From Climacium dendroides (Eukaryota > Streptophyta > Bryopsida > Hypnales > Climaciaceae), in contig OX467083.1 of assembly GCA_950106755.1 (NCBI GenBank), positions 28,081,029-28,145,028 of the forward strand: a DNA stretch of 64,000 nt. Direction: 5' to 3'. The notes under the pieces are model-generated. The model had not been told where the DNA came from. It searched no databases and saw nothing but the letters and a program-made list of their open reading frames with translations. The position numbers and the translations under genes were made by a program. Below, one piece after another: positions 3,593-62,321 of the stretch. Within the stretch, counting starts at the first letter, position 1, and each line of letters starts with the position of its first letter.

Positions 3593-5969
3593 GTGCTCCA
3601 ATGTCTAATTTTTAAACAATGAATAGATTCATATTTTTGTTTCTTTTTTACCACTATTTGGATGAAAATCATTCTAATCTGTGGAGATACTTTATCAAGT
3701 TGTTGTCCTATCTAATGATTGGATTTGGTATTATTAGGGTACATGTTTTTCTAAAACTACAAATGTGGAAGTATGTCAAATGGTTGACCAAGTCAAAATT
3801 GCAATGGCTCTAATTCAAAATTGAATTTGCAAAAATGAGGTCGCAAATGTAAAAAACACAAAAATTCAAAAATTCACCATGCCAAGAGAACTTCCTTTGA
3901 AATCCATTCCAAAAAGTTTTACTTAAAAATGATAATATTTTGCTTGTAATCAAAATTTGAAGGAATTTTAAAATTTTTCTTTCAAAATTCATAAAAAAAA
4001 TATTGGTGATAGTAGTGGTGAATCTAATCATATGGATGGAATCTAAAATTCAAAATCTACAACTTTCATTTATATACCAATTCCAAAATATTCTTTCAAA
4101 TAGTACTCTTTAATGATTTTTTCCAAATCATAAATCTAGAAAAAGCTCAAGACATTTAGGGGTTGTATTCACCATTTATAAAAGATTGATATATTATCCT
4201 TTATTGGCATTAATGCAATGATTTTGCTTGAAAATGAACAAATTTGGATGAATTTTGGAATGGAATTGAGGCCACTAATAGGATGATGAAATCAGATGGC
4301 TTGTAGAAATGAATTCACTTACCTTAATTACCCTCATTGCATTTACAATTTTTTTAACAAAATAATGGAAAATTAGAAAATATCCCACATGTGTTTTAGT
4401 CATCTCATTTTTGAAGAAAAAAAATGATCTGTAATAAGCAATAAAAGGAAAACCACATTGTTTGTCATTGTAGACCATAGGAGGTGACTATTCCTACATT
4501 TTTGGATGCTAATGTAATTCTCTTAATTTCTAAATGGTTCCAATGATGATCAAAAGGTTTACCTTCATGTTGTCAATGAAATAAAAAATGAATCTATTGC
4601 CATGTGTAAAAGTGTCATATTGTGGTTTCTAGCAATTTAGGAATCATTATACGTAATAATTAGTTTATGTAAAGTAAAAAAATTAATTAGGCATCCCAAA
4701 ATCATATATTAAATTTAAGCACTCATCCAAATTGTTCTTACAATTTTGGGATGGTTGCTGCTATTTTCATCCTAGGTGACCACATTTACCGAAACCCTTG
4801 TCTTAACCTCTAAACCTTAAACTCTTTACCTTATAAGTTAGGATTTTGTTAAGTGTTAGGGCTTATTGTATGTGTGTATGTGTGAAAGGATTACCTAATG
4901 TATAGAAATTCAAGTCATTCTACACAATCTTGCATATTTTTCTTTATCAATAATTATAAACATATATTGCAAAGTTTTTTGCCTCACTAGGTCTCGCATT
5001 AGGTCAATAATTTTCCAAAAATTTTAGATACCTTTTTAATTATTTATTTTAATCAAGTTATTAGAACACTATAATAGTGGTAAGTGGTGTTCATTAATAT
5101 CATAAAATGGTGATGTTTATGCTAAATCAAACTTTTTAAACTTCAATTCTACAATAAGTGTAATTTGCACTTTATTGAGATGCAAGAGAATGAAATTGCG
5201 TTATATACAAGGGATCCAAATTTGGATTGGAATCTATATTGGGTTTGTCTACCTTAAAGCTCATTTGGCCTTTGTAGAACTATAGTACAAAAACTCCAAA
5301 TTATTTATCTTAACAAATAAATGTAAAAATTGTGTTTAGTATATAATTGTTAAATTGAATATTTTAAAAAATCTTGTATCTAATTCAATGTTTTTGATTC
5401 CAAATATATATTCAAGATTCCCAAACATTATTACTTGTGATAAGTAATAAATTTTTGAATTTTTTCATAGAGGAAAAATTTAGAGGTAGTTCAAAGAGAC
5501 CAATTAAGATCTAGTCCTAACTATATATCATATTTGTTGTCTACATATGCTTGATATGATCTTCAAAATTTTGAATGTGTAAAGATGAAATAATATTAAG
5601 GCCTTTATTCTACTTATATGGTGAATTTACACTAGCATTTTCTCTACACAGGAAATCATAACCAACTTGCAAATTTGACATATGAAATAACCACTCTCAC
5701 TATCAAAGTAAATGAATTTACTTTCCAAGATCCCTTTGCTAGCACGAGCTTGAGCCAACTGTTGATGTTTCTTCTCCTTGTTGGTTGTTCTATATGGCCT
5801 TCATTATAAGGAAAAGGCATGTAGATAAGTTTAGTTCCTATTCGGAAATACCTAAACTAATAATAAAGTTCATTCCAAAGGAGGTCTTTTTAAATAGGGT
5901 TGTCTCTAATTAGAATACTATTAGGCCAAACCAGTCATTGCAACCAAAAACACAAGAAGAAAATGTTCC
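3593..5969. other. Intergenic, AT-rich, no gene seen
   Basis: About 2.4 kb with no supported coding region. A CATTTAGGGG end near 4150-4163 resembles the right end of the TTAA-element family, but its TTAA and a matching left end were not found. Confidence 0.4.
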
Positions 5970-5973
5970 TTAA

Positions 5974-5986
5974 CCCTTCAGGGCCG
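5974..5986 (+). repeat. Left terminal inverted repeat of the piggyBac element
   Basis: CCCTTCAGGGCCG follows TTAA. It matches the inverted right end at 11770-11782 at 12 of 13 positions. Confidence 0.85.
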
Positions 5987-6885
5987 ACTGCTTGGTAGGG
6001 TTCCGGGAGCTTCAGAAAGTGACATTTGAGTTTTGATTTTTCACAAGTTTAGTATAGGTATTAAAGGAAAATTGACCGTACCAATGTGAACTCCAGTATG
6101 TCAAAGAAGGAAAAAAAAAATTTGGAACCTTGAGGTTCATCGTAGACCTTGCATCGGTGAAGTACAAAGTGCTGTCTCTGCATACGACAGGTGAATCTTA
6201 GGTCATATGAGTTCTATAATTGCTCGGATCAAGCAACTCCCATGGACTCTAGAATTGAAAGAATGGAATTTAGGAATATCTGATGTGCTGAAGCCGATGG
6301 ACTTGGAATTTCGGAGAAAAGAATTCGAGTGTGCGATGAAGAAGAGGGTAAACTCATGAGGTTTCTAGGCCTACGAATAATACAACAATCACCCGAAACT
6401 TTGAGGATTTTTAGGAAAATCACAGTTGAGTTGATTGAAAATCCAACCGTCTAAGTTGACCTCTTTGTGGTAATCGACAACAATGATTTTTTGTGAAATC
6501 AAACAGTCCACAGACGCAGGGAATTCACTTCGTACTTGTGTCGAGAGTGTAAGCTCCGGGTGAAGAGATCGTATCTGAATTTCATTGGGTCAAGGGTTGT
6601 GTTGGACCCCTTCACCCGGCTAACTGCTGGCAGAATACAAGGACAACCACGCGATCGCGCCACTTATTCCCGCCAAAGTCAAGGCGGGACTACACTGTAC
6701 CAAGAACTTCGCGCCTAAAATTGGGTCCTCTTGTTCCAATATTGTGCATGAAAAGTCGTGGAAAATTCAAGAGAGGAGGCAACATGGAAACATCGCAATT
6801 GCATTACAGATCCCAAGAGTCTTACACGGAGGAAAAAAAAGGTTCTTGCAAGATCAATAGACGTGGGAAAAGCCACACCACCGTC
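5987..6885. other. Non-coding left (3') arm of the piggyBac element
   Basis: This stretch lies between the left terminal repeat and the tandem duplication. Only short, unconvincing open frames are present. It is downstream of the transposase, so it may hold the 3' UTR and subterminal binding sites. Confidence 0.45.
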
Positions 6886-7135
6886 AAGTTCAAAGTTCGT
6901 AGTACAACTAAGTGCGGCTAACATGCTGCTACAATTGGACTCTTCAAAATAGAATTGTATGCGCGGTAAGCAAGACACTAATAGAGTGATTTAGTTTCTA
7001 CTCAACCATAAAGTTCAAAGTTCGTAATACAGCTAAGTGCGGCTAACGTGCTGCTACAATTGGACTCTTCAAAATAGAATTGTATGCGCGGTAAGCAAGA
7101 CACTAATAGAGTGATTTAGTTTCTACTCAACCATA
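6886..7135. repeat. Tandem duplication, two 125-bp units
   Basis: The unit beginning AAGTTCAAAGTTCGTA at 6886 is repeated at 7011 with only a few substitutions; each unit ends CTACTCAACCATA. The near identity implies a recent duplication. It sits just downstream of the transposase stop, inside the transposon. Confidence 0.88.
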
Positions 7136-7299
7136 CAAGATAGCTCACTAATGCTGGACTGAACTCTCCGTCAAGCGGGCTGTCAAGGGAAATGTCTGAG
7201 AAGTCGTAGCACTTCAACTTCAACGGCACGGACGGAGACTCTGCTTTCAGTTTCATAACACTGAGAAGCTTGCCTACACAAGCAACCACAAGATCGCCT

Positions 7300-7530
7300 T
7301 CATCTCAGTACTAGTGCAGCATACCGAGCTTGTGTGTGGACTTTGTAATAGCAATCCCCATCGCACATGTAAGCTCCATTGCAGCCAGGACAGTAACGGT
7401 TCATGACCTTCCCACAAATCTTACACTTCTGGCGTCGCTTGTTGCCTTTACCAGCAAGATAATGGATGCCTTTGTTCTGGATGTTGAAGGCCCCATAGGT
7501 CCGACCTGTCTTCATCCAATGATCGCACAA
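7300..7530 (-). pseudogene. piggyBac transposase C-terminal cysteine-rich zinc-finger segment, after in-frame TGA
   Basis: This 76-residue frame is in the same phase as the catalytic frame upstream and is separated from it only by a TGA at 7531-7533. It contains a cysteine cluster of the kind found at the C terminus of piggyBac transposases: CKICGKVMNRYCPGC, then CDGDC and a terminal H. In piggyBac the C-terminal domain binds the transposon ends. No ATG occurs until its sixth codon, so it is best read as the continuation of the transposase. The TGA could be a CGA-to-TGA decay mutation, or could be read through. A short intron is not supported by obvious splice sites. Confidence 0.75.
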
Positions 7531-9189
7531 TCAACAACCAATCTTATATTGATATTTTTCTCTATCTAACGGCTTCACTAATCCTGTTTCCTCTACATGA
7601 TTCTTGTACACGATATAACTGTTTCCAATGGAAGAGTCTAAAACAAATATAAGAAGTCTGTGCCACCACTTTCGAGTTTGAAGTTGAGATGAATACTCGT
7701 GTCTATGTTGATCAATGACGTCGATCCCTCTCATATTCTGCTGATACTCAAGAAGGATTGGACTAGTGTAGAAGTCCTTGTGCTCACTACCGATCCAACA
7801 CTTACATGTCAACCCCTCAGACGCTACAGGATCTGATGCGGTACTAATCAGAGAGTCAGGCTGCGCATCTTGCCACACAATCGCAGCCATTTGCTTAAAG
7901 CGATGCATTTTGGTCAGCAAGGTCCCTCGGGTAAGTTCGAAGTCTGCAGCATACTGCTTCAGAATTGGCGGCATGCCTACACGCCCTCGTTTGACAGTAC
8001 CAGTCCCCCAAAATCCTCGACTGAGTAGTGTGTCGAGGAGTCTCGGTGAGGTAAAAAAATTATCTGTTACAATAATGTGACCACGGTGACTCAAGTTTTC
8101 CGTTAGCTCGAGAACAACTCTCATTCCAAGGTCTAGTTCTACTTTCCCTCCTTGTGCCCCTAAATAGACTTGTAAATTCCAGATGTACGTTGACTGAGAG
8201 TTGGCGGCACACCAAACTTTGATTCCATATTCCACTGGCTTTCTAGGCATGTATTGTCTAAAGTCACAGAAGTGTCCCTTGTACTTTATCATAATCTCAT
8301 CTACTGTTATGTATTTCTGACAATTGTAAAGGGACTGACTAATCTTCACAAAATCTTCTATCAACCACCTTACTTTGCCCAACTTATCATAACCAGGGCT
8401 ACACTTGAGAACCAGTTTGGCATTATCAACAAGATGAATGCACCGAAGGATTGCCTCGAAGCGATCTCGACTGAGAATAGACTTGATGACACGACACCCA
8501 AATAGAGCACGCTTTTCCCAATACGACCTAATTTGAGGAAGTTTCTTCAGACCCATGAATAAAAGGATCCCAAGAAATCCTCTCAACTCGTCAGGACACA
8601 AGTCTACCCAATTTGTTCCCCCATTTAGGCCTTCTTTTCTTGGTTTAGTAGGTACTTGTTTAGCATACATATTTGTTTGATCACAAATCTTGCTCAACGT
8701 CTCTTGGGGCCAAAAAGCATTAAAGGCTTCATGTAAAGCCATCGGCCTTCTAAGGTTTTGCCTAATTGGACCGGGAGAGGGACCAGAGAAGTTATCTCGA
8801 CTCCCCTCCAATCGAGTTGATGTTTCCTGCCAATTGGATTCATCGTATTTCATAGCAAACGACAAGGACTCAAGTGATTCACTCGCACTCTCCAGTAACT
8901 CACTACAATCCTCTGGGACTATCCAATCCGAATTACCTGAATCAGAGGAGTCGACGAAGTCACCGTACCGTGCAACCCATTCATCTTCAAGCGACTCATT
9001 TGAGGAAATCTCCTTCACATTCACGTCCCCCAATCCAAGATAGCCCGGGTAGTCACAAAGCAGAGTGGGCAATGATCTCTTCACCGGAGTGAGCTGAGGA
9101 ACATCAACGCCCTCGAAAACCTCATACTGTCCAAGACCATTATCTTCCACTATAAGAAAACCTTGTTTTAGGTGACAGATTGACATCAA
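7531..9189 (-). CDS. piggyBac-type transposase, catalytic ORF (5' end supplied by a MITE)
   Basis: This 552-residue frame holds the RNase H-like DDE transposase domain (DDE_Tnp_1_7 type). Visible piggyBac motifs include GFLGILLFMGLKKLPQIR-like sequence near residue 205, YITVDEIMIKYKG with the first catalytic Asp at D297, HIIVTDNFFTS with D376, and FVLDSSIGNSYIVYKN with D518. All three catalytic acidic residues are present. A Ser/Glu-rich acidic region precedes the domain at about residues 55-115. The apparent start (residues 1-14) lies inside the 9148-9377 MITE; true transposase sequence begins at the Glu at residue 15, which is encoded by the target-site duplication. The frame ends in TGA directly before the in-phase zinc-finger segment. 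The piggyBac assignment is firm; activity is doubtful. Confidence 0.9.
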   Translation of the reverse strand: MMSICHLKQGFLIVEDNGLGQYEVFEGVDVPQLTPVKRSLPTLLCDYPGYLGLGDVNVKEISSNESLEDEWVARYGDFVDSSDSGNSDWIVPEDCSELLESASESLESLSFAMKYDESNWQETSTRLEGSRDNFSGPSPGPIRQNLRRPMALHEAFNAFWPQETLSKICDQTNMYAKQVPTKPRKEGLNGGTNWVDLCPDELRGFLGILLFMGLKKLPQIRSYWEKRALFGCRVIKSILSRDRFEAILRCIHLVDNAKLVLKCSPGYDKLGKVRWLIEDFVKISQSLYNCQKYITVDEIMIKYKGHFCDFRQYMPRKPVEYGIKVWCAANSQSTYIWNLQVYLGAQGGKVELDLGMRVVLELTENLSHRGHIIVTDNFFTSPRLLDTLLSRGFWGTGTVKRGRVGMPPILKQYAADFELTRGTLLTKMHRFKQMAAIVWQDAQPDSLISTASDPVASEGLTCKCWIGSEHKDFYTSPILLEYQQNMRGIDVIDQHRHEYSSQLQTRKWWHRLLIFVLDSSIGNSYIVYKNHVEETGLVKPLDREKYQYKIGC

Positions 9190-9377
9190 AAGGAACGGAT
9201 TTTAGGTGACATCAAAGGTGACATTGAAAAAAACAAACCCATGTTTTTATGTCAACAATGATGTCCATTGATGTTATATTGGACATCATTGTTGACATAA
9301 AAACATGGGTTTGTTTTTTTCAATGTCACCTAAAATCCGTTCCTTTTGACATCAATAAATTTTGGTTTCTTATAGTG
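9148..9377. mobile_element. CACTA-type MITE (230 bp) inside the transposase gene
   Basis: The element begins CACTATAAGAAA and ends in the complement TTTCTTATAGTG. It is flanked by the 3-bp duplication TTC (9145-9147 and 9378-9380), as expected of the CACTA (En/Spm) superfamily. It is nearly one long palindrome around 9265-9280, with two TTTTAGGTGACA blocks on one side. A diverged family member lies at 62104-62321. It contributes a stop codon to the N-terminal frame and a false start to the catalytic frame. Confidence 0.88.
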
Positions 9378-9881
9378 TTCGGATGTACGTTGTCCAAGCA
9401 ACACTGGAAATTGAGATGGGTCTTCGTGACTTGAGGACGTACTGTTGTCTTTCTGCGGTTGTGGTCGACCACCAGCAATGACTTTGCATTCACGTGCTGA
9501 CACAGCTCGATGTCCAAGGTATCCGTCGAAGTGAAGCATATATGTCAACTCCCCTGTAATTTTGTGAACAAAGCGGCGAGTGACCTGTCCGATGACTGAG
9601 AACTCCTCGTACCTTGATGGAGTATACTGGAATACATCTTGAGCTACTCGAACTTGCTTACCAATCATGTCGCTGTCAGATCCAGAGTGGCTACTGCAAT
9701 TGATATACCAATCCAAGGAATCCCGTTCACTTAGATCCTTCTCGGTTGACTTACAACCGCAGTGCTCAGCCTCTTTGCAGTCTACGTGAGTGTTGACGGA
9801 TCCTCCTCCAATGTCAGTAACATGTTCATTTGTTGGCAAAAGCCGTTGACCTCCATGTGTAGCAAAATTGTGGGGACTCAT
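9330..9881 (-). pseudogene. piggyBac transposase N-terminal segment, cut off by the MITE
   Basis: This 183-residue frame starts at ATG 9881-9879. Its first 168 residues belong to the transposase; the last 15 are read into the MITE and end at its TAG. Residues about 73-138 (GKQVRVAQDVF through ARECKVI) alternate short beta-strand-like stretches with aromatic residues and a HFDGY motif. This resembles a Tudor/Agenet-type beta-barrel, but that is inferred by eye. Residues 25-50 include four cysteines and two histidines (HVDCKEAEHCGC). After conceptual removal of the MITE and one TTC copy, the frame runs directly into the catalytic frame, giving about 705 residues up to the TGA. An upstream exon is possible. 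Confidence 0.72.
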
Positions 9882-11769
9882 AGCCCACTATAAAGACCTA
9901 GCTAAAGCTAAGGCAGGAGGAGATTGCGGCCGGTCTTCCTCCCAAATGCTTCGCACAACGCGACTCCCTGATTCACGTCGCGGCCTCAAAATCCGTGGTG
10001 ATCGGTCACCATGAACCAAAATTGGTAGCCTCTTCCAACCCTCCGGCGATTCGGTATACTCCGGAGTTATAACTGAATCTCGAAAACTCTCTTCGTCTTC
10101 TAATTGCCCATGTCCTCGCCCACCTTTTGATCGTCCGTGACCCCTTCCTCACCCACGACCCCTTCCTCGCCCACATCCCCTTCCTCGACTTCGACCTCAA
10201 ACCCTTCCACCTGAATCACATCCACCATCTTCCTCCCCCCCTCCCCCTGCTCCATGTAACCCATCTCCCAATTCAAATTCTGGGCTTGCGAGTGCTTCGC
10301 CAGCCACCAATGCAGTCACCCCCCCGCTTTCTTCTTCCTTGGAAAGCGCAGCTTTGGTGCTTGCTTTCCCTTTCCTTGCGTGCTCTTCACAGCCCCCTCC
10401 GTGGCTTGTAGCAGCGCATTCACCCCATCGCCGTTTGCATCCAATTCCATCGGTGATGGCAGGACCAATTGGAGGCACCCCTTGCTCAACGATTGGGGGA
10501 CGACGTTGTTGGTTGATCCCAGGTGATCGTCCAACAATGGCGAGGGGGGGACTTCCTGACGAGTCAGGCGGCGTTTTGCTTGACGCTTGACTCTCATCTG
10601 GGTCCTGGGGCTCCTCTGCAACAATCGCTTCTTTGCTACATCTCTGCTTGCCTCCTTCAACGAAAAGTGGGGTGACATTTGGGATGCCATCTTCAATATC
10701 AGGCCAAATTCGATGTGAAACTTGACTCACCAGCACTGGAAAATCAGTTTGCTTACAAAACCCTAATACATTAGCAATGTGTCTATAAAATAGATATTAC
10801 CACTCCTTTGCTGTAGGGTTTGCAGTGAGAGGCCTACTCTTCAATGGCAAAGGCAAAGTCAACAAATGCTTCTCACTCAAACAATTGAGGACCCCTACTC
10901 TCTCAGAATCAGTCTTCTTCTCTGCAACCATCCAATTATCAAGTATCTCAGCTTCTTCTTCCAAGTGATCGGGGAAGCAGGCTGGCCTCGTGTACCCGCA
11001 TTTGTATCCTCCTCCCTCCATTGCAATTGCAACGAGCTGCAGCTTGAGCGGCAAAATTTGTGGCGGGAGTCTCCAATCCTCACAGCTTCAAAAGTTGTCA
11101 AACCGCCAATTTTCAAGCCTTCCTCGACAGTAAGGCAATCCAGGATGCTCCAACAAGGATTGTCGCTTCCACCACTCATAGCCATACTTTTCCTGCTCCA
11201 ACAACGATCGCCGCGTCCACCACTCATAGCCATATTTGTCCTGGGAGATTGTGAACATACTAGCAAGGACTCTAAAGGTGTTCCAAAAATGACGTCCACT
11301 ACCAATTTGGCAGAGCACGTCCACAACAACATTATTCTAATGCATTCCATTGTCAGGACAAGTGCGGAATGCCGGCTGCATCGCTCCACAATGAGAGTGC
11401 CTACGCGAAACTCCAACGACCCTGAAGCCATAGGAAGTCCTGGCGAACGGACAAGCAACGACCAGCTTGTTGATTTGGAATTTGCGCCAAACCCTGAATC
11501 CGAAGAAGCGTCCGGTGTCAGACATGCAACCATCAGGTGACATCATCTTCTCGCTGGTGTTTCGGGGATGCTTTTGCAGCAAACCCTCGACCTGTTCTGA
11601 TGTTTCATGCTCCTTCTTCCGATTTGTAACTCCGATCTTCAATTAGAGACGCCCCTCTGAAACTAGACCCTAAACCGCACACATTCTTTGTTTGTTGCCA
11701 AATGATTCACAGTACCCTAAACCCTAGAAATTCAGCTTCAAACTTTCAGAAGGCAATTTTTGCCTCCTC
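9882..11769 (-). other. 5' arm of the piggyBac element with overlapping unrecognised ORFs
   Basis: This GC-richer 1.9 kb lies upstream of the transposase. Minus-strand frames include 10197-10736 (179 aa, rich in Gly, Pro, Ser and Glu), 10316-10696 (126 aa, ending in a basic stretch PKLRFPRKKK), 10895-11533 (212 aa) and 11337-11642 (101 aa). None matches a family I recognise, and they overlap in different frames, so at most some are real. Possible readings are 5' UTR and first exons of the transposase, a captured host fragment, or a second element gene. A 48-bp unit containing CCACCACTCATAGCCATA is repeated at 11169 and 11217, and short GEEG-coding repeats lie near 10127-10195. Confidence 0.4.
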
Positions 11770-11782
11770 CGGCCCTGAGGGG
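11770..11782 (-). repeat. Right terminal inverted repeat of the piggyBac element
   Basis: Read on the minus strand this is CCCCTCAGGGCCG, next to TTAA at 11783-11786. It pairs with the left end at 5974-5986. Confidence 0.85.
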
Positions 11783-11879
11783 TTAACCATCTAAAACTAT
11801 CATTATTCCTCACTTGGTAACACTAATTCCAGAATTTAAACTCTCCCCTCTTAATGGCCACAAGGGTTAAGAAATCATC

Positions 11880-31069: not shown

Positions 31070-32272
31070 CACTAGTAGAAAAATACAGTGACCAAATTAA
31101 CAAAAATCAACAGAAAAGTGTTGATTTTTTTTGTTAATTTGGACGTGTTAATTTGGGCACTTTTGAACAGAAAAGTGTTGATTTTTGAACAAAAATGTGT
31201 TGTTTAAGAACAAAAAAGTGTTGAATTTCTAACAAAAAAGTGTTGTTTTAGAACAAAAAAGTGTTAATTTTTTTGTTAATTTGGTCACATTATTTTTTTA
31301 AATTATTATTTTTGAAAAAAAATGAATAAAAGGTGACACGTGAAAATGCCATGTAGGCACCCCCAACTAGCCACGTGGCATGCCACACAAGCTACTTGAA
31401 TGCCACATGGACAGTCCAAATGCCACGTTGGCAATTCACGTGGCCAACGTTGGCATCAAGGTTTGAACCTTGAACCTCATGGTTGAGGCCCAAGACTCAA
31501 ACCAATGCACCACTTATACATATACATGTATAAAGTGTATATAAAATCTTATTTGTTTAGTTTTTCATTTTTTTCCCATTGTTTTTTAAAGTCAGCGTAC
31601 TTCAGGGATGGTTTTGACTTAGTAAATGACCTTTTCTCAAGAAACTTTGAACTAATAAAAGTTGGAAAATCAAGCCAACTTTCACCTCCAACAATCCGTT
31701 TGAGATTTCGATCCTCCAATCAAAAGTTATGGACAAAAATCAGAGAGGGGTTTTAAAAATGTAAAAGAAATGATTCATTTTCACCCCTCTCTGATTTTTG
31801 TCCATAACTTTTGATTGGAGGATCGAAATCTCAAACGGATTGTTGGAGGTGAAATTTGGCTTGATTTCCCAACTTTTATTAGTTCAAAGTTTCTTGAAAA
31901 AAGGTCATTTATTAAGTCAAAACCGGCCCTGAAGTATGCTGACTTTAAGAAATACCGAATTGTTAATGTTTAGTTTTTGAAAAAATCTACATTGTACAAT
32001 TAAAGATTCCAAGAGATTCCAAGAGATTCCAGGAGATTCCAAAAGATTCCAAAAAGATTTCTAAAAGATTCTAAAAGATTCTAAAAGATTCTAAAAGATT
32101 TAACAAAATTTTGTTGATTTTAGTTGCACTATCCAAATCAACAAAAATAATGTGACCATTTTGTTAATTTGGGCAAAATCAACAAAAATTTGTGAAAATG
32201 GACAATACAGTACCCAAGTTAACAGAAATTTGTTGACTATTTGTTGATTTGGTCACTGATTTTCTACTAGTG
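31070..32272. mobile_element. Non-autonomous CACTA element, 1203 bp, with long internal hairpin
   Basis: The left end CACTAGTAGAAAAATACAGT pairs with the right end, whose complement is CACTAGTAGAAAATCAGTGA, and both are followed by AGTGACCAAAT and AACA. The 3-bp duplication CAT lies at 31067-31069 and 32273-32275. Subterminal short repeats are prominent: about five AACAAAAAAGTGTTG units on the left, and GATTCCAAGA / GATTCTAAAA runs on the right (about 32005-32100). Two arms of about 180 bp (about 31585-31765 and 31775-31950) form a long inverted repeat. No transposase is encoded. Copy 1 of the host repeat gives the empty site. Confidence 0.9.
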
Positions 32273-36329: not shown

Positions 36330-36904
36330 AGGTAGTGGGATCATAGATCCATCCTTTAAGGGCTGATTGGGCTAATTTGCCATTTTCACAGATTTCCATG
36401 GACAAAATGATTTTTAATTCATTTTTTAGAGAATGAAAACACTACTAGAAAATTTTGTTTTTCTGTTGTTTTGGTCGCGCTGATCCGGTCAAAATCTGAC
36501 AAAAATCTGTTGGTTTCAACAGATTTTTGTCAAATTTTGACCGGATCAACGAAACCAATTAACAGAAAAACAAAATTTTCTAGTAGTGAAAATAGATGGG
36601 GAACACAACACAAATAGTTTCGTATTTTTCCAAGCATTTTTGAATTACTTGTGAATTTTCAAAGATTCAGGTCATAGGTATCTATTTGTGACCATGCTAG
36701 ATGTCCCAAAATCCATCCCCTTGTGACTTATAAAGAAATGTGCAGAAATCGAAGACAATGATTGGCTCTTATAATTAAAAATAATTATTTTCCTTGAATT
36801 CATTAACAGACCAAAGAAGTCCATTCAAGGGTCACTTGGCATCCATTCTTCAATTACCTACAAGACAGTTTGAAGAAGAGGGTCAAGATTAGATCCACCT
36901 ACCT
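36330..36904. mobile_element. TA-flanked AGGTA-family element with a CACTA MITE nested inside
   Basis: The left end AGGTAGTGGGATC and the complement of the right end, AGGTAGGTGGATC, are inverted. TA flanks both sides (36328-36329 and 36905-36906). The interior aligns with 50723-51119 and, reversed, with 52614-53003. Shared landmarks are a GATGnGGAAC block, CACCTATTTGTGA-like sequence and AATAATTGGCTCTT. The 149-bp CACTA MITE at 36440-36588 interrupts this alignment. Confidence 0.75.
36440..36588. mobile_element. CACTA MITE, 149 bp
   Basis: It begins CACTACTAGAAAATTTTG and ends with the exact complement. AAA flanks both sides (36437-36439 and 36589-36591). The whole element is an almost perfect hairpin around 36510-36520, with GATCCGGTCAAAAT in one arm and ATTTTGACCGGATC in the other. 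Confidence 0.9.
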
Positions 36905-62103: not shown

Positions 62104-62321
62104 CACTATATGGAATCTACATTTTAGGTGACAAGCTCCAATTTTTATAAATGGATTTTAGGTGACATTGAATGCAACAACCCCATGTTTTTATATCAAC
62201 ATTGATGTTACGTTGAACATTTTTGATGACATAAAAATATGGGTTTGTTGCATTGAATGTCACCTAAAATCTATTTGAAATAATTGGGGCTTATCACATA
62301 AAGTGTAGGTTTCTCATAGTT
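62104..62321. mobile_element. CACTA MITE, 218 bp, relative of 9148-9377
   Basis: The left end CACTATATGGAATCTAC and the complement of the right end, AACTATGAGAAACCTAC, are diverged. The 3-bp duplication ATA lies at 62101-62103 and 62322-62324. It shares GGATTTTAGGTGACAT, CCCATGTTTTTAT and the overall palindrome with the MITE in the piggyBac transposase. Confidence 0.8.

What the first reader, a model, noticed from the sequence alone, without database searches (positions are those of the whole stretch)
9145..9380. A 230-bp CACTA MITE splits a piggyBac transposase, and its removal restores the frame exactly
The MITE has CACTATAAGAAA ends and a TTC duplication on both sides. Deleting it with one TTC joins ...RTSE to DNGLGQYEVFEG in a single open frame of about 705 codons. 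The host gene was therefore intact when hit, which gives a clear order of events between two superfamilies.
Basis: seen in the sequence. Interest (0 to 1): 0.75.

Follow-up and report, generated by a model that had tools for sequence, protein, structure and literature searches.

The report
Small transposon inside a moss piggyBac
In a moss chromosome a 230-base hairpin transposon of a common family jumped into one copy of a piggyBac transposon; the insertion is real and two sister copies still show the empty site, but the struck gene was longer than first read, carries five stop codons of its own, and cannot be shown to have been intact when hit.

Summary
Confirmed: window 9148-9377 is a 230-bp CACTA-type hairpin MITE with 12/12 terminal repeats and a TTC duplication, inside a piggyBac transposase gene (minus strand). 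Two sister copies (97% identical over the whole element) have the uninterrupted site with one TTC, so the MITE is neither an ancestral intron nor coding sequence. The family is abundant: 188 exact left ends; 37 of 39 inspected copies have 3-bp duplications.

Corrected: the 705-codon frame is not the whole gene. The frame shared with the sister copies runs at least 1,132 codons (10931-7300). The window copy has five in-frame stops, each absent from both sisters; the 705 codons lie between the fourth and fifth. Its lineage was open when it split from the sisters; whether it was open when the MITE landed is unresolved (9-17% on a toy clock).

Beyond the finding: the host is a moss near Ceratodon. 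Its genome gives 88 piggyBac matches, some open over 1,000 codons, and several transposases share an N-terminal domain predicted as a Tudor/chromobarrel-like barrel. Reports on piggyBac in plants differ: one passage calls it occasional, two others list it in land plants or a fern. The nesting itself is ordinary; the moss piggyBacs are the more interesting part.

The parts
9148..9377 (+). CACTA-type MITE, 230 bp, near-perfect hairpin (52 + 34 nt arms, 12-nt loop)
   Evidence: family members
9145..9147 (.). target-site duplication TTC, left copy
   Evidence: single in both empty paralogs
9378..9380 (.). target-site duplication TTC, right copy
5970..11786 (-). whole piggyBac element including its TTAA duplications (TTAA 5970-5973 and 11783-11786; terminal repeats CCCTTCAGGGCCG / CCCCTCAGGGCCG, 12 of 13)
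   Evidence: (I10)
7300..10931 (-). transposase reading frame of at least 1,132 codons, now interrupted by the MITE and by five stop codons
   Evidence: in-frame ATG 90 bases further upstream at 11021
9468..9680 (-). conserved N-terminal domain, predicted Tudor/chromobarrel-like barrel
7531..9144 (-). part carrying the DDE transposase domain (PF13843, E 1.3e-79 for the ORF 7531-9201)
10797..10799 (-). private in-frame stop TAA (codon 45; CGA in both paralogs)
10197..10199 (-). private in-frame stop TGA (codon 245; CGA in both paralogs)
10149..10151 (-). private in-frame stop TGA (codon 261; CGA and CAA in the paralogs)
7531..7533 (-). private in-frame stop TGA (codon 1056; TGG in both paralogs), just before the Cys-rich C-terminus
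6885..7134 (-). 125-bp tandem duplication (about 97%), in this copy and not in L009 or L010, 3' of the gene

Best explanation
A non-autonomous CACTA (EnSpm-type) hairpin MITE was inserted by cut-and-paste transposition into a piggyBac copy of a moss, after that copy's lineage had split from two sister copies. Shown: the MITE, its TTC duplication, its multi-copy family, and the empty site in the two sisters. Shown: all three copies changed mainly by C-to-T/G-to-A, at the highest rate per site in CG and CHG. Inferred: this is deamination of methylated cytosines in silenced elements; the MITE was moved by a TNP2-type transposase of the genome's CACTA elements; it landed at the present site rather than shortly before the copy's last jump; and the struck copy had most likely (about 0.8) already gained at least one stop codon. 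The MITE gave no new function that I can see; it is one more lesion in a dying transposon. The confidence below is for the insertion itself and the order 'sister split, then MITE'.
For: Anatomy and TSD. Empty site in L009 and L010, one TTC, 97.2% and 96.9% identity over about 5.46 kb, alignments ending at the element ends. MITE family: 39 other copies 97-99% identical to this one (the best 40 scored of 1,077 candidates, so biased upwards), 3-bp TSD in 37 of 39, 188 exact left ends. 150 TNP2 domain matches scored among 825 candidates, so CACTA transposases are plentiful. Private substitutions: window 74, L009 74, L010 94, of which 63, 65 and 81 are C>T or G>A; per site in the window copy CG 24/456, CHG 21/440, CHH 18/1712. 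Read in the window's frame: five private stops in this copy, two in L009, three in L010.
Against: No autonomous partner found: 12 of the 150 scored TNP2 matches were read with about 4.7 kb on each side and none had paired matching ends, though longer elements would run off those stretches; the single CACTATAAGAAA (L067) continues into sequence unlike the MITE. The order of stops and MITE rests on a toy clock. Absence from the sisters dates the MITE to after the split, not strictly to after the jump to this site. No methylation or small-RNA data were available.
Confidence: 0.93

Rival explanations
1. One reading: the transposase gene was intact when the MITE hit it, and the five stop codons came later.
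For: All five stops are private to this copy, so its lineage was open at the split from the sisters; the window copy shows no frameshift against P0002 over 492 residues and keeps one frame to the shared end codon.
Against: With one MITE event and five stops on a uniform clock the chance that the MITE came first is 0.17, or 0.09 after weighting by the MITE's 0 private differences (a simple model). One of the stops needed two changes (CGA to TAA).
Confidence: 0.15
2. The 230 bp are an intron or conserved part of the gene.
For: The gene-strand 3' end TTTTCTTATAG resembles an acceptor site, and a cryptic donor 11 bases upstream of the MITE (AAC|GTACAT) would give an open product two codons shorter.
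Against: Both near paralogs lack it and read straight through; the same 230 bp lie at many other places, with 3-bp duplications in 37 of 39 inspected.
Confidence: 0.02
3. The MITE entered the progenitor of this copy after the split from the sisters, or earlier with loss in the sisters, and was carried here when piggyBac jumped.
For: The sister copies only date the MITE to after the split or require its loss; CACTA elements can excise (established knowledge); one other MITE copy (L002) also has a TTC duplication.
Against: Both empty copies are clean at the site, without footprint; L002 shares no flanking sequence with the window in 1.5 kb on each side; no other piggyBac copy with this MITE was seen, but I checked only the two sisters for it.
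Confidence: 0.1

Closest known systems
CACTA (EnSpm) MITEs of plants
   Same: CACTA termini, 3-bp duplication of varying sequence, short, no ORF, hairpin, many near-identical copies.
   Different: Long and near-perfect palindrome (52 nt at 100% plus 34 nt at 94%); parent transposase not identified.
piggyBac transposons (PF13843; piggyBat and piggyBac structures)
   Same: TTAA duplications, terminal repeats beginning CCC, DDE_Tnp_1_7 domain, aligned aspartate motifs, Cys-rich C-terminus.
   Different: Transposase frame of at least 1,132 codons against chains of 578 and 594 residues; RG-rich stretch and a predicted Tudor-like domain ahead of the catalytic part; host is a moss.
Nested transposon insertions in plants
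   Same: One element inside another, giving relative order; papers on nested insertions were listed (listing only).
   Different: Here the outer element is a piggyBac. I did not search specifically for nesting in plant piggyBacs, so no claim of priority is made.

Membership tests
CACTA MITE | terminal inverted repeat beginning CACTA | tested here: met
   12 of 12 at both ends
CACTA MITE | 3-bp target-site duplication | tested here: met
   TTC here; identical 3-mers in 37 of 39 other copies
CACTA MITE | short, non-coding, present in many near-identical copies | tested here: met
   228-230 bp in all 40 aligned copies; 188 exact left ends
CACTA MITE | moved by a TNP2-type transposase that shares its ends | tested here: inconclusive
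   TNP2 domains abundant, but 12 of 150 read with flanks show no shared ends
piggyBac | TTAA duplication and CCC-type terminal repeats | tested here: met
   scan met in window and L009 (12 of 13) and in the distant copies L011 (13) and L013 (12); not met in L010, L012, L014, L015. L010, whose repeat has diverged at one end, still lies between TTAA
piggyBac | DDE_Tnp_1_7 catalytic domain with aligned aspartates | tested here: met
   PF13843 E 1.3e-79; aligned to piggyBat across the Asp motifs (which residues are catalytic is recalled)
piggyBac | Cys-rich C-terminal domain | tested here: met
   aligned to P0001 beyond the private TGA
piggyBac | precise excision and transposition activity | not testable with these tools
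   needs an experiment
Tudor / chromobarrel domain (N-terminal domain of the transposase) | sequence match to a described family | tested here: not met
   no Pfam match for that stretch up to E 10
Tudor / chromobarrel domain (N-terminal domain of the transposase) | small beta-barrel fold of the Tudor/chromo kind | tested here: inconclusive
   model pLDDT 84.8, five strands; Foldseek's best rows are mostly Tudor and chromo domains, TM about 0.58-0.64 in the first 12, but the best E is 0.068, none is under 0.001, and unrelated small barrels (such as PetP, rank 5) score alike

The most novel reading that the evidence does not exclude
Mosses carry their own diverse, recently active group of piggyBac transposons whose transposases have gained a Tudor/chromobarrel-like chromatin-reading domain that helps choose where they integrate, while the host silences them by cytosine methylation.
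Probability: 0.3. Interest if true: 0.6.

Novelty: new member of a known kind. Interest (0 to 1): 0.35.

Why it matters
As a nested insertion it is ordinary: a common MITE in a decaying transposon, useful mainly as a clean case with two surviving empty sites. It matters more as an entry to piggyBac biology in land plants. A 2025 paper describes the superfamily as occasional in plants, naming red algae (PMC12732532, passages); on the other side a 2015 survey counts PiggyBac among superfamilies found in all its groups, land plants included (PMC4438587, passages), and a fern repeat table has a PiggyBac row (PMC6890710, passage). This moss genome gives 88 matched stretches, two of which I confirmed as ORFs over 1,000 codons from ATG. 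Three sister copies with clear methylation-type decay also allow the history of one small burst to be read.

Tried and rejected
Intron or conserved coding sequence: rejected, empty paralogs. Chance hairpin or assembly artefact: rejected, family of many copies. Dating the MITE by private mutations: tried, uninformative. Autonomous partner: 12 TNP2 loci scanned for paired ends, none fits; the one shared 12-mer in L067 was judged chance; the ten shorter loci L053-L062 were not scanned. Spliced removal: cryptic sites exist, nothing more can be said without RNA. Rfam on the window: 0 matches. Exact left end in the prokaryote collection: 0. Paper searches, judged by titles and abstract starts except for passages read in five papers: PMC10619864 only uses the word piggybacking. 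Other listed papers that hold both words, such as PMC5505980 and PMC10004981, were not opened.

Full report
What was claimed and what is there. All of that is in the sequence: element 9148-9377, TTC at 9145-9147 and 9378-9380, ends matching 12 of 12, internal arms of 52 nt (100%) and 34 nt (94%) around a 12-nt loop. Leaving out the MITE and one TTC gives a 707-codon stop-to-stop frame on the minus strand. The catalytic part is a piggyBac transposase: PF13843 with E 1.3e-79; the two solved sequences matched are piggyBat and a chain named only 'Transposase' (6x67/6x68, piggyBac by my recall).

Host. The window lies in a 412.6-Mb assembly of 123 contigs. A LEAFY-like SAM domain is present, and two stretches of its gene are 94% identical to a protein of the moss Ceratodon purpureus, the best named hit (342 hits, 120 listed). 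The host is therefore taken as a moss near Ceratodon; the species is not identified. piggyBac matches lie on ten contigs of 28 to 52 Mb, among them C34, which also holds the best LEAFY match, so contamination is unlikely.

The MITE is a real mobile family. A genome search scored 40 of 1,077 candidates, each also matching in the opposite orientation because of the palindrome. I aligned all 40: each is 228-230 bp, and 37 of the 39 others carry identical 3-bp flanks of varied, AT-rich sequence. The 40 are the best matches to this copy, so their similarity is biased upwards. The 30-nt left end (28 bases specified) occurs 188 times, 94 on each strand, and 0 times for the pattern read backwards. TNP2 (Transposase_21) domains are abundant, 150 scored of 825 candidates, but in 12 of those 150, read with about 4.7 kb on each side, I found no element with these ends; elements longer than that could have been missed.

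The empty site. A protein search of the genome gave 88 matched stretches from 81 scored of 813 candidates (some copies give two rows). Two are close: C3:39827995 (96%) and C2:17260273 (95%). Fetched with flanks (L009, L010), both align to the window over the whole element 5966-11786 and break exactly at the MITE with one TTC. I did not examine the more distant copies for it. The alignments end at TTAA, with 12-of-13 terminal repeats in the window and L009; L010's repeat has diverged at one end but lies at TTAA too. So the element here is a complete piggyBac of 5.8 kb including the MITE, and the copies are most simply explained by transposition.

P0002, a 492-residue database protein, aligns without a gap at 93% identity to window frame 10931-9456, upstream of the MITE, and P0001 (931 aa) aligns through the C-terminus. 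The frame shared with the sister copies ends at a common TGA at 7300-7302, 1,132 codons from the Met at 10931; an in-frame ATG 30 codons further up would make it 1,162. In the window copy codons 45, 245, 261, 348 and 1056 are stops. Each is private: the paralogs have Arg, Arg, Arg/Gln, Gln and Trp, and every change fits C>T or G>A. The 705-codon frame is the stretch between the fourth and fifth stop. The paralogs are broken too: read in the window's frame L009 has two private stops (codons 249, 778) and L010 three (267, 681, 968), and both have indels that shift the frame.

Mode of decay. Private substitutions number 74 in the window copy, 74 in L009 and 94 in L010 (two further columns differ in all three), of which 63, 65 and 81 are C>T or G>A. 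Per site they are commonest at CG and CHG: in the window copy 24/456, 21/440 and 18/1712 for CG, CHG and CHH, and CG and CHG exceed CHH in the other two copies too. The majority of three copies was taken as the ancestral base, without an outgroup. This is the pattern expected of methylated, silenced plant transposons (established knowledge; methylation itself was not measured). The near-equal counts suggest that the three copies date from one short burst.

Order of events. Shown: the MITE entered after this copy's lineage split from the two sisters, unless both lost it without trace. Shown: that lineage was open at the split, since none of its stops is shared. Not shown: that the MITE landed at the present site rather than shortly before the last jump, nor that the frame was open when it landed. 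The MITE has 0 private differences among 40 copies (its 2 substitutions and 1 indel against the majority are shared with other copies). If it were as old as the split, about 1.5 private changes would be expected, and 0 has probability 0.21. With one MITE and five stops on a uniform clock, the chance that the MITE came first is 0.17, or 0.09 with the weighting.

Consequences of the insertion. The MITE adds an in-frame stop after ...RTSEHYKKPKFIDVKRNGF. On the gene strand it ends in TTTTCTTATAG plus TG, and a cryptic donor (AAC|GTACAT) 11 bases before it would give an open spliced product two codons short; there is no RNA evidence. A transcript would hold a hairpin of -130 to -132 kcal/mol, which could feed small-RNA silencing; that is inference.

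What else the locus shows. Five copies (window, its two sisters, L011 and L012) share a conserved stretch ahead of the catalytic part (window 9468-9680), 15 of 71 columns identical; the two sisters are 93-94% alike to the window there, so the independent evidence is L011 and L012 at 29-30%. P0001 aligns in this stretch, L015 does so poorly. The model is confident (pLDDT 84.8) and its best structural neighbours are mostly Tudor and chromo domains, but the best E is 0.068, other small barrels score alike, and Pfam gives no match. In a tree of 22 sequences (four moss copies and 18 of the 19 proteins; P0002 left out as it lacks the catalytic part) the four moss copies and the unnamed P0001 form one group (100/99) apart from the others, whose named members are animals; the moss copies alone are not shown to be a clade, and wider plant sampling is missing. 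Six of the 88 matched rows lie in open frames of 850 codons or more without a stop; three of these were read as ORFs from ATG, 872, 1,045 and 1,054 codons.

Place in the literature. piggyBac is described as occasional in plants, red algae named (PMC12732532, passages). Against that, a repeat table of the fern Ceratopteris has a PiggyBac row (PMC6890710, passage), and PMC4438587 counts PiggyBac among superfamilies found in all groups it studied, land plants being one (passages). So piggyBac-labelled DNA in land plants is not new. My searches for piggyBac with moss, bryophyte, Physcomitrella, Ceratodon and mosses listed no paper whose title or abstract start deals with moss piggyBac elements, within an open-access library only and without opening most of them.

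Verdict. Observation confirmed; interpretation partly supported. A normal MITE insertion, well documented by two empty sites, in a piggyBac copy that has decayed by other means as well. Interest moderate to low for the nesting, higher for the moss piggyBacs.

Noticed in passing
9468-9680 (minus strand); L011:3579-3788, L012:4092-4298: Conserved N-terminal domain of moss piggyBac transposases, predicted as a Tudor/chromobarrel-like barrel with no Pfam match; poorly aligned in L015.
   Followed up: partly
G000 genome-wide: 88 piggyBac matches in a moss genome, six rows in open frames of 850 codons or more without stops.
   Followed up: partly
62104-62321: An older relative of the same MITE (76-79% over about 120 bp) with worn CACTA ends and apparent ATA duplications, read by eye.
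   Followed up: partly
31070-32272: A 1,203-bp candidate non-autonomous CACTA element, ends CACTAGTAGAAA, duplication CAT.
   Followed up: no
36440-36588: A 149-bp candidate CACTA MITE, ends CACTACTAGAAA, duplication AAA.
   Followed up: no
6885-7134: A 125-bp tandem duplication 3' of the transposase gene, absent from both sister copies.
   Followed up: partly
G000:C34, C38, C2, C41, C3: Five places match the LEAFY SAM domain, one strong and four weaker, all over the family cut-off; more than I would expect for a gene usually of low copy number (recalled).
   Followed up: no
L014 (G000:C34:28607000-28616900): A more distant relative of the same piggyBac (67-77% in aligned pieces) that is itself split by about 5 kb of other sequence.
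   Followed up: no
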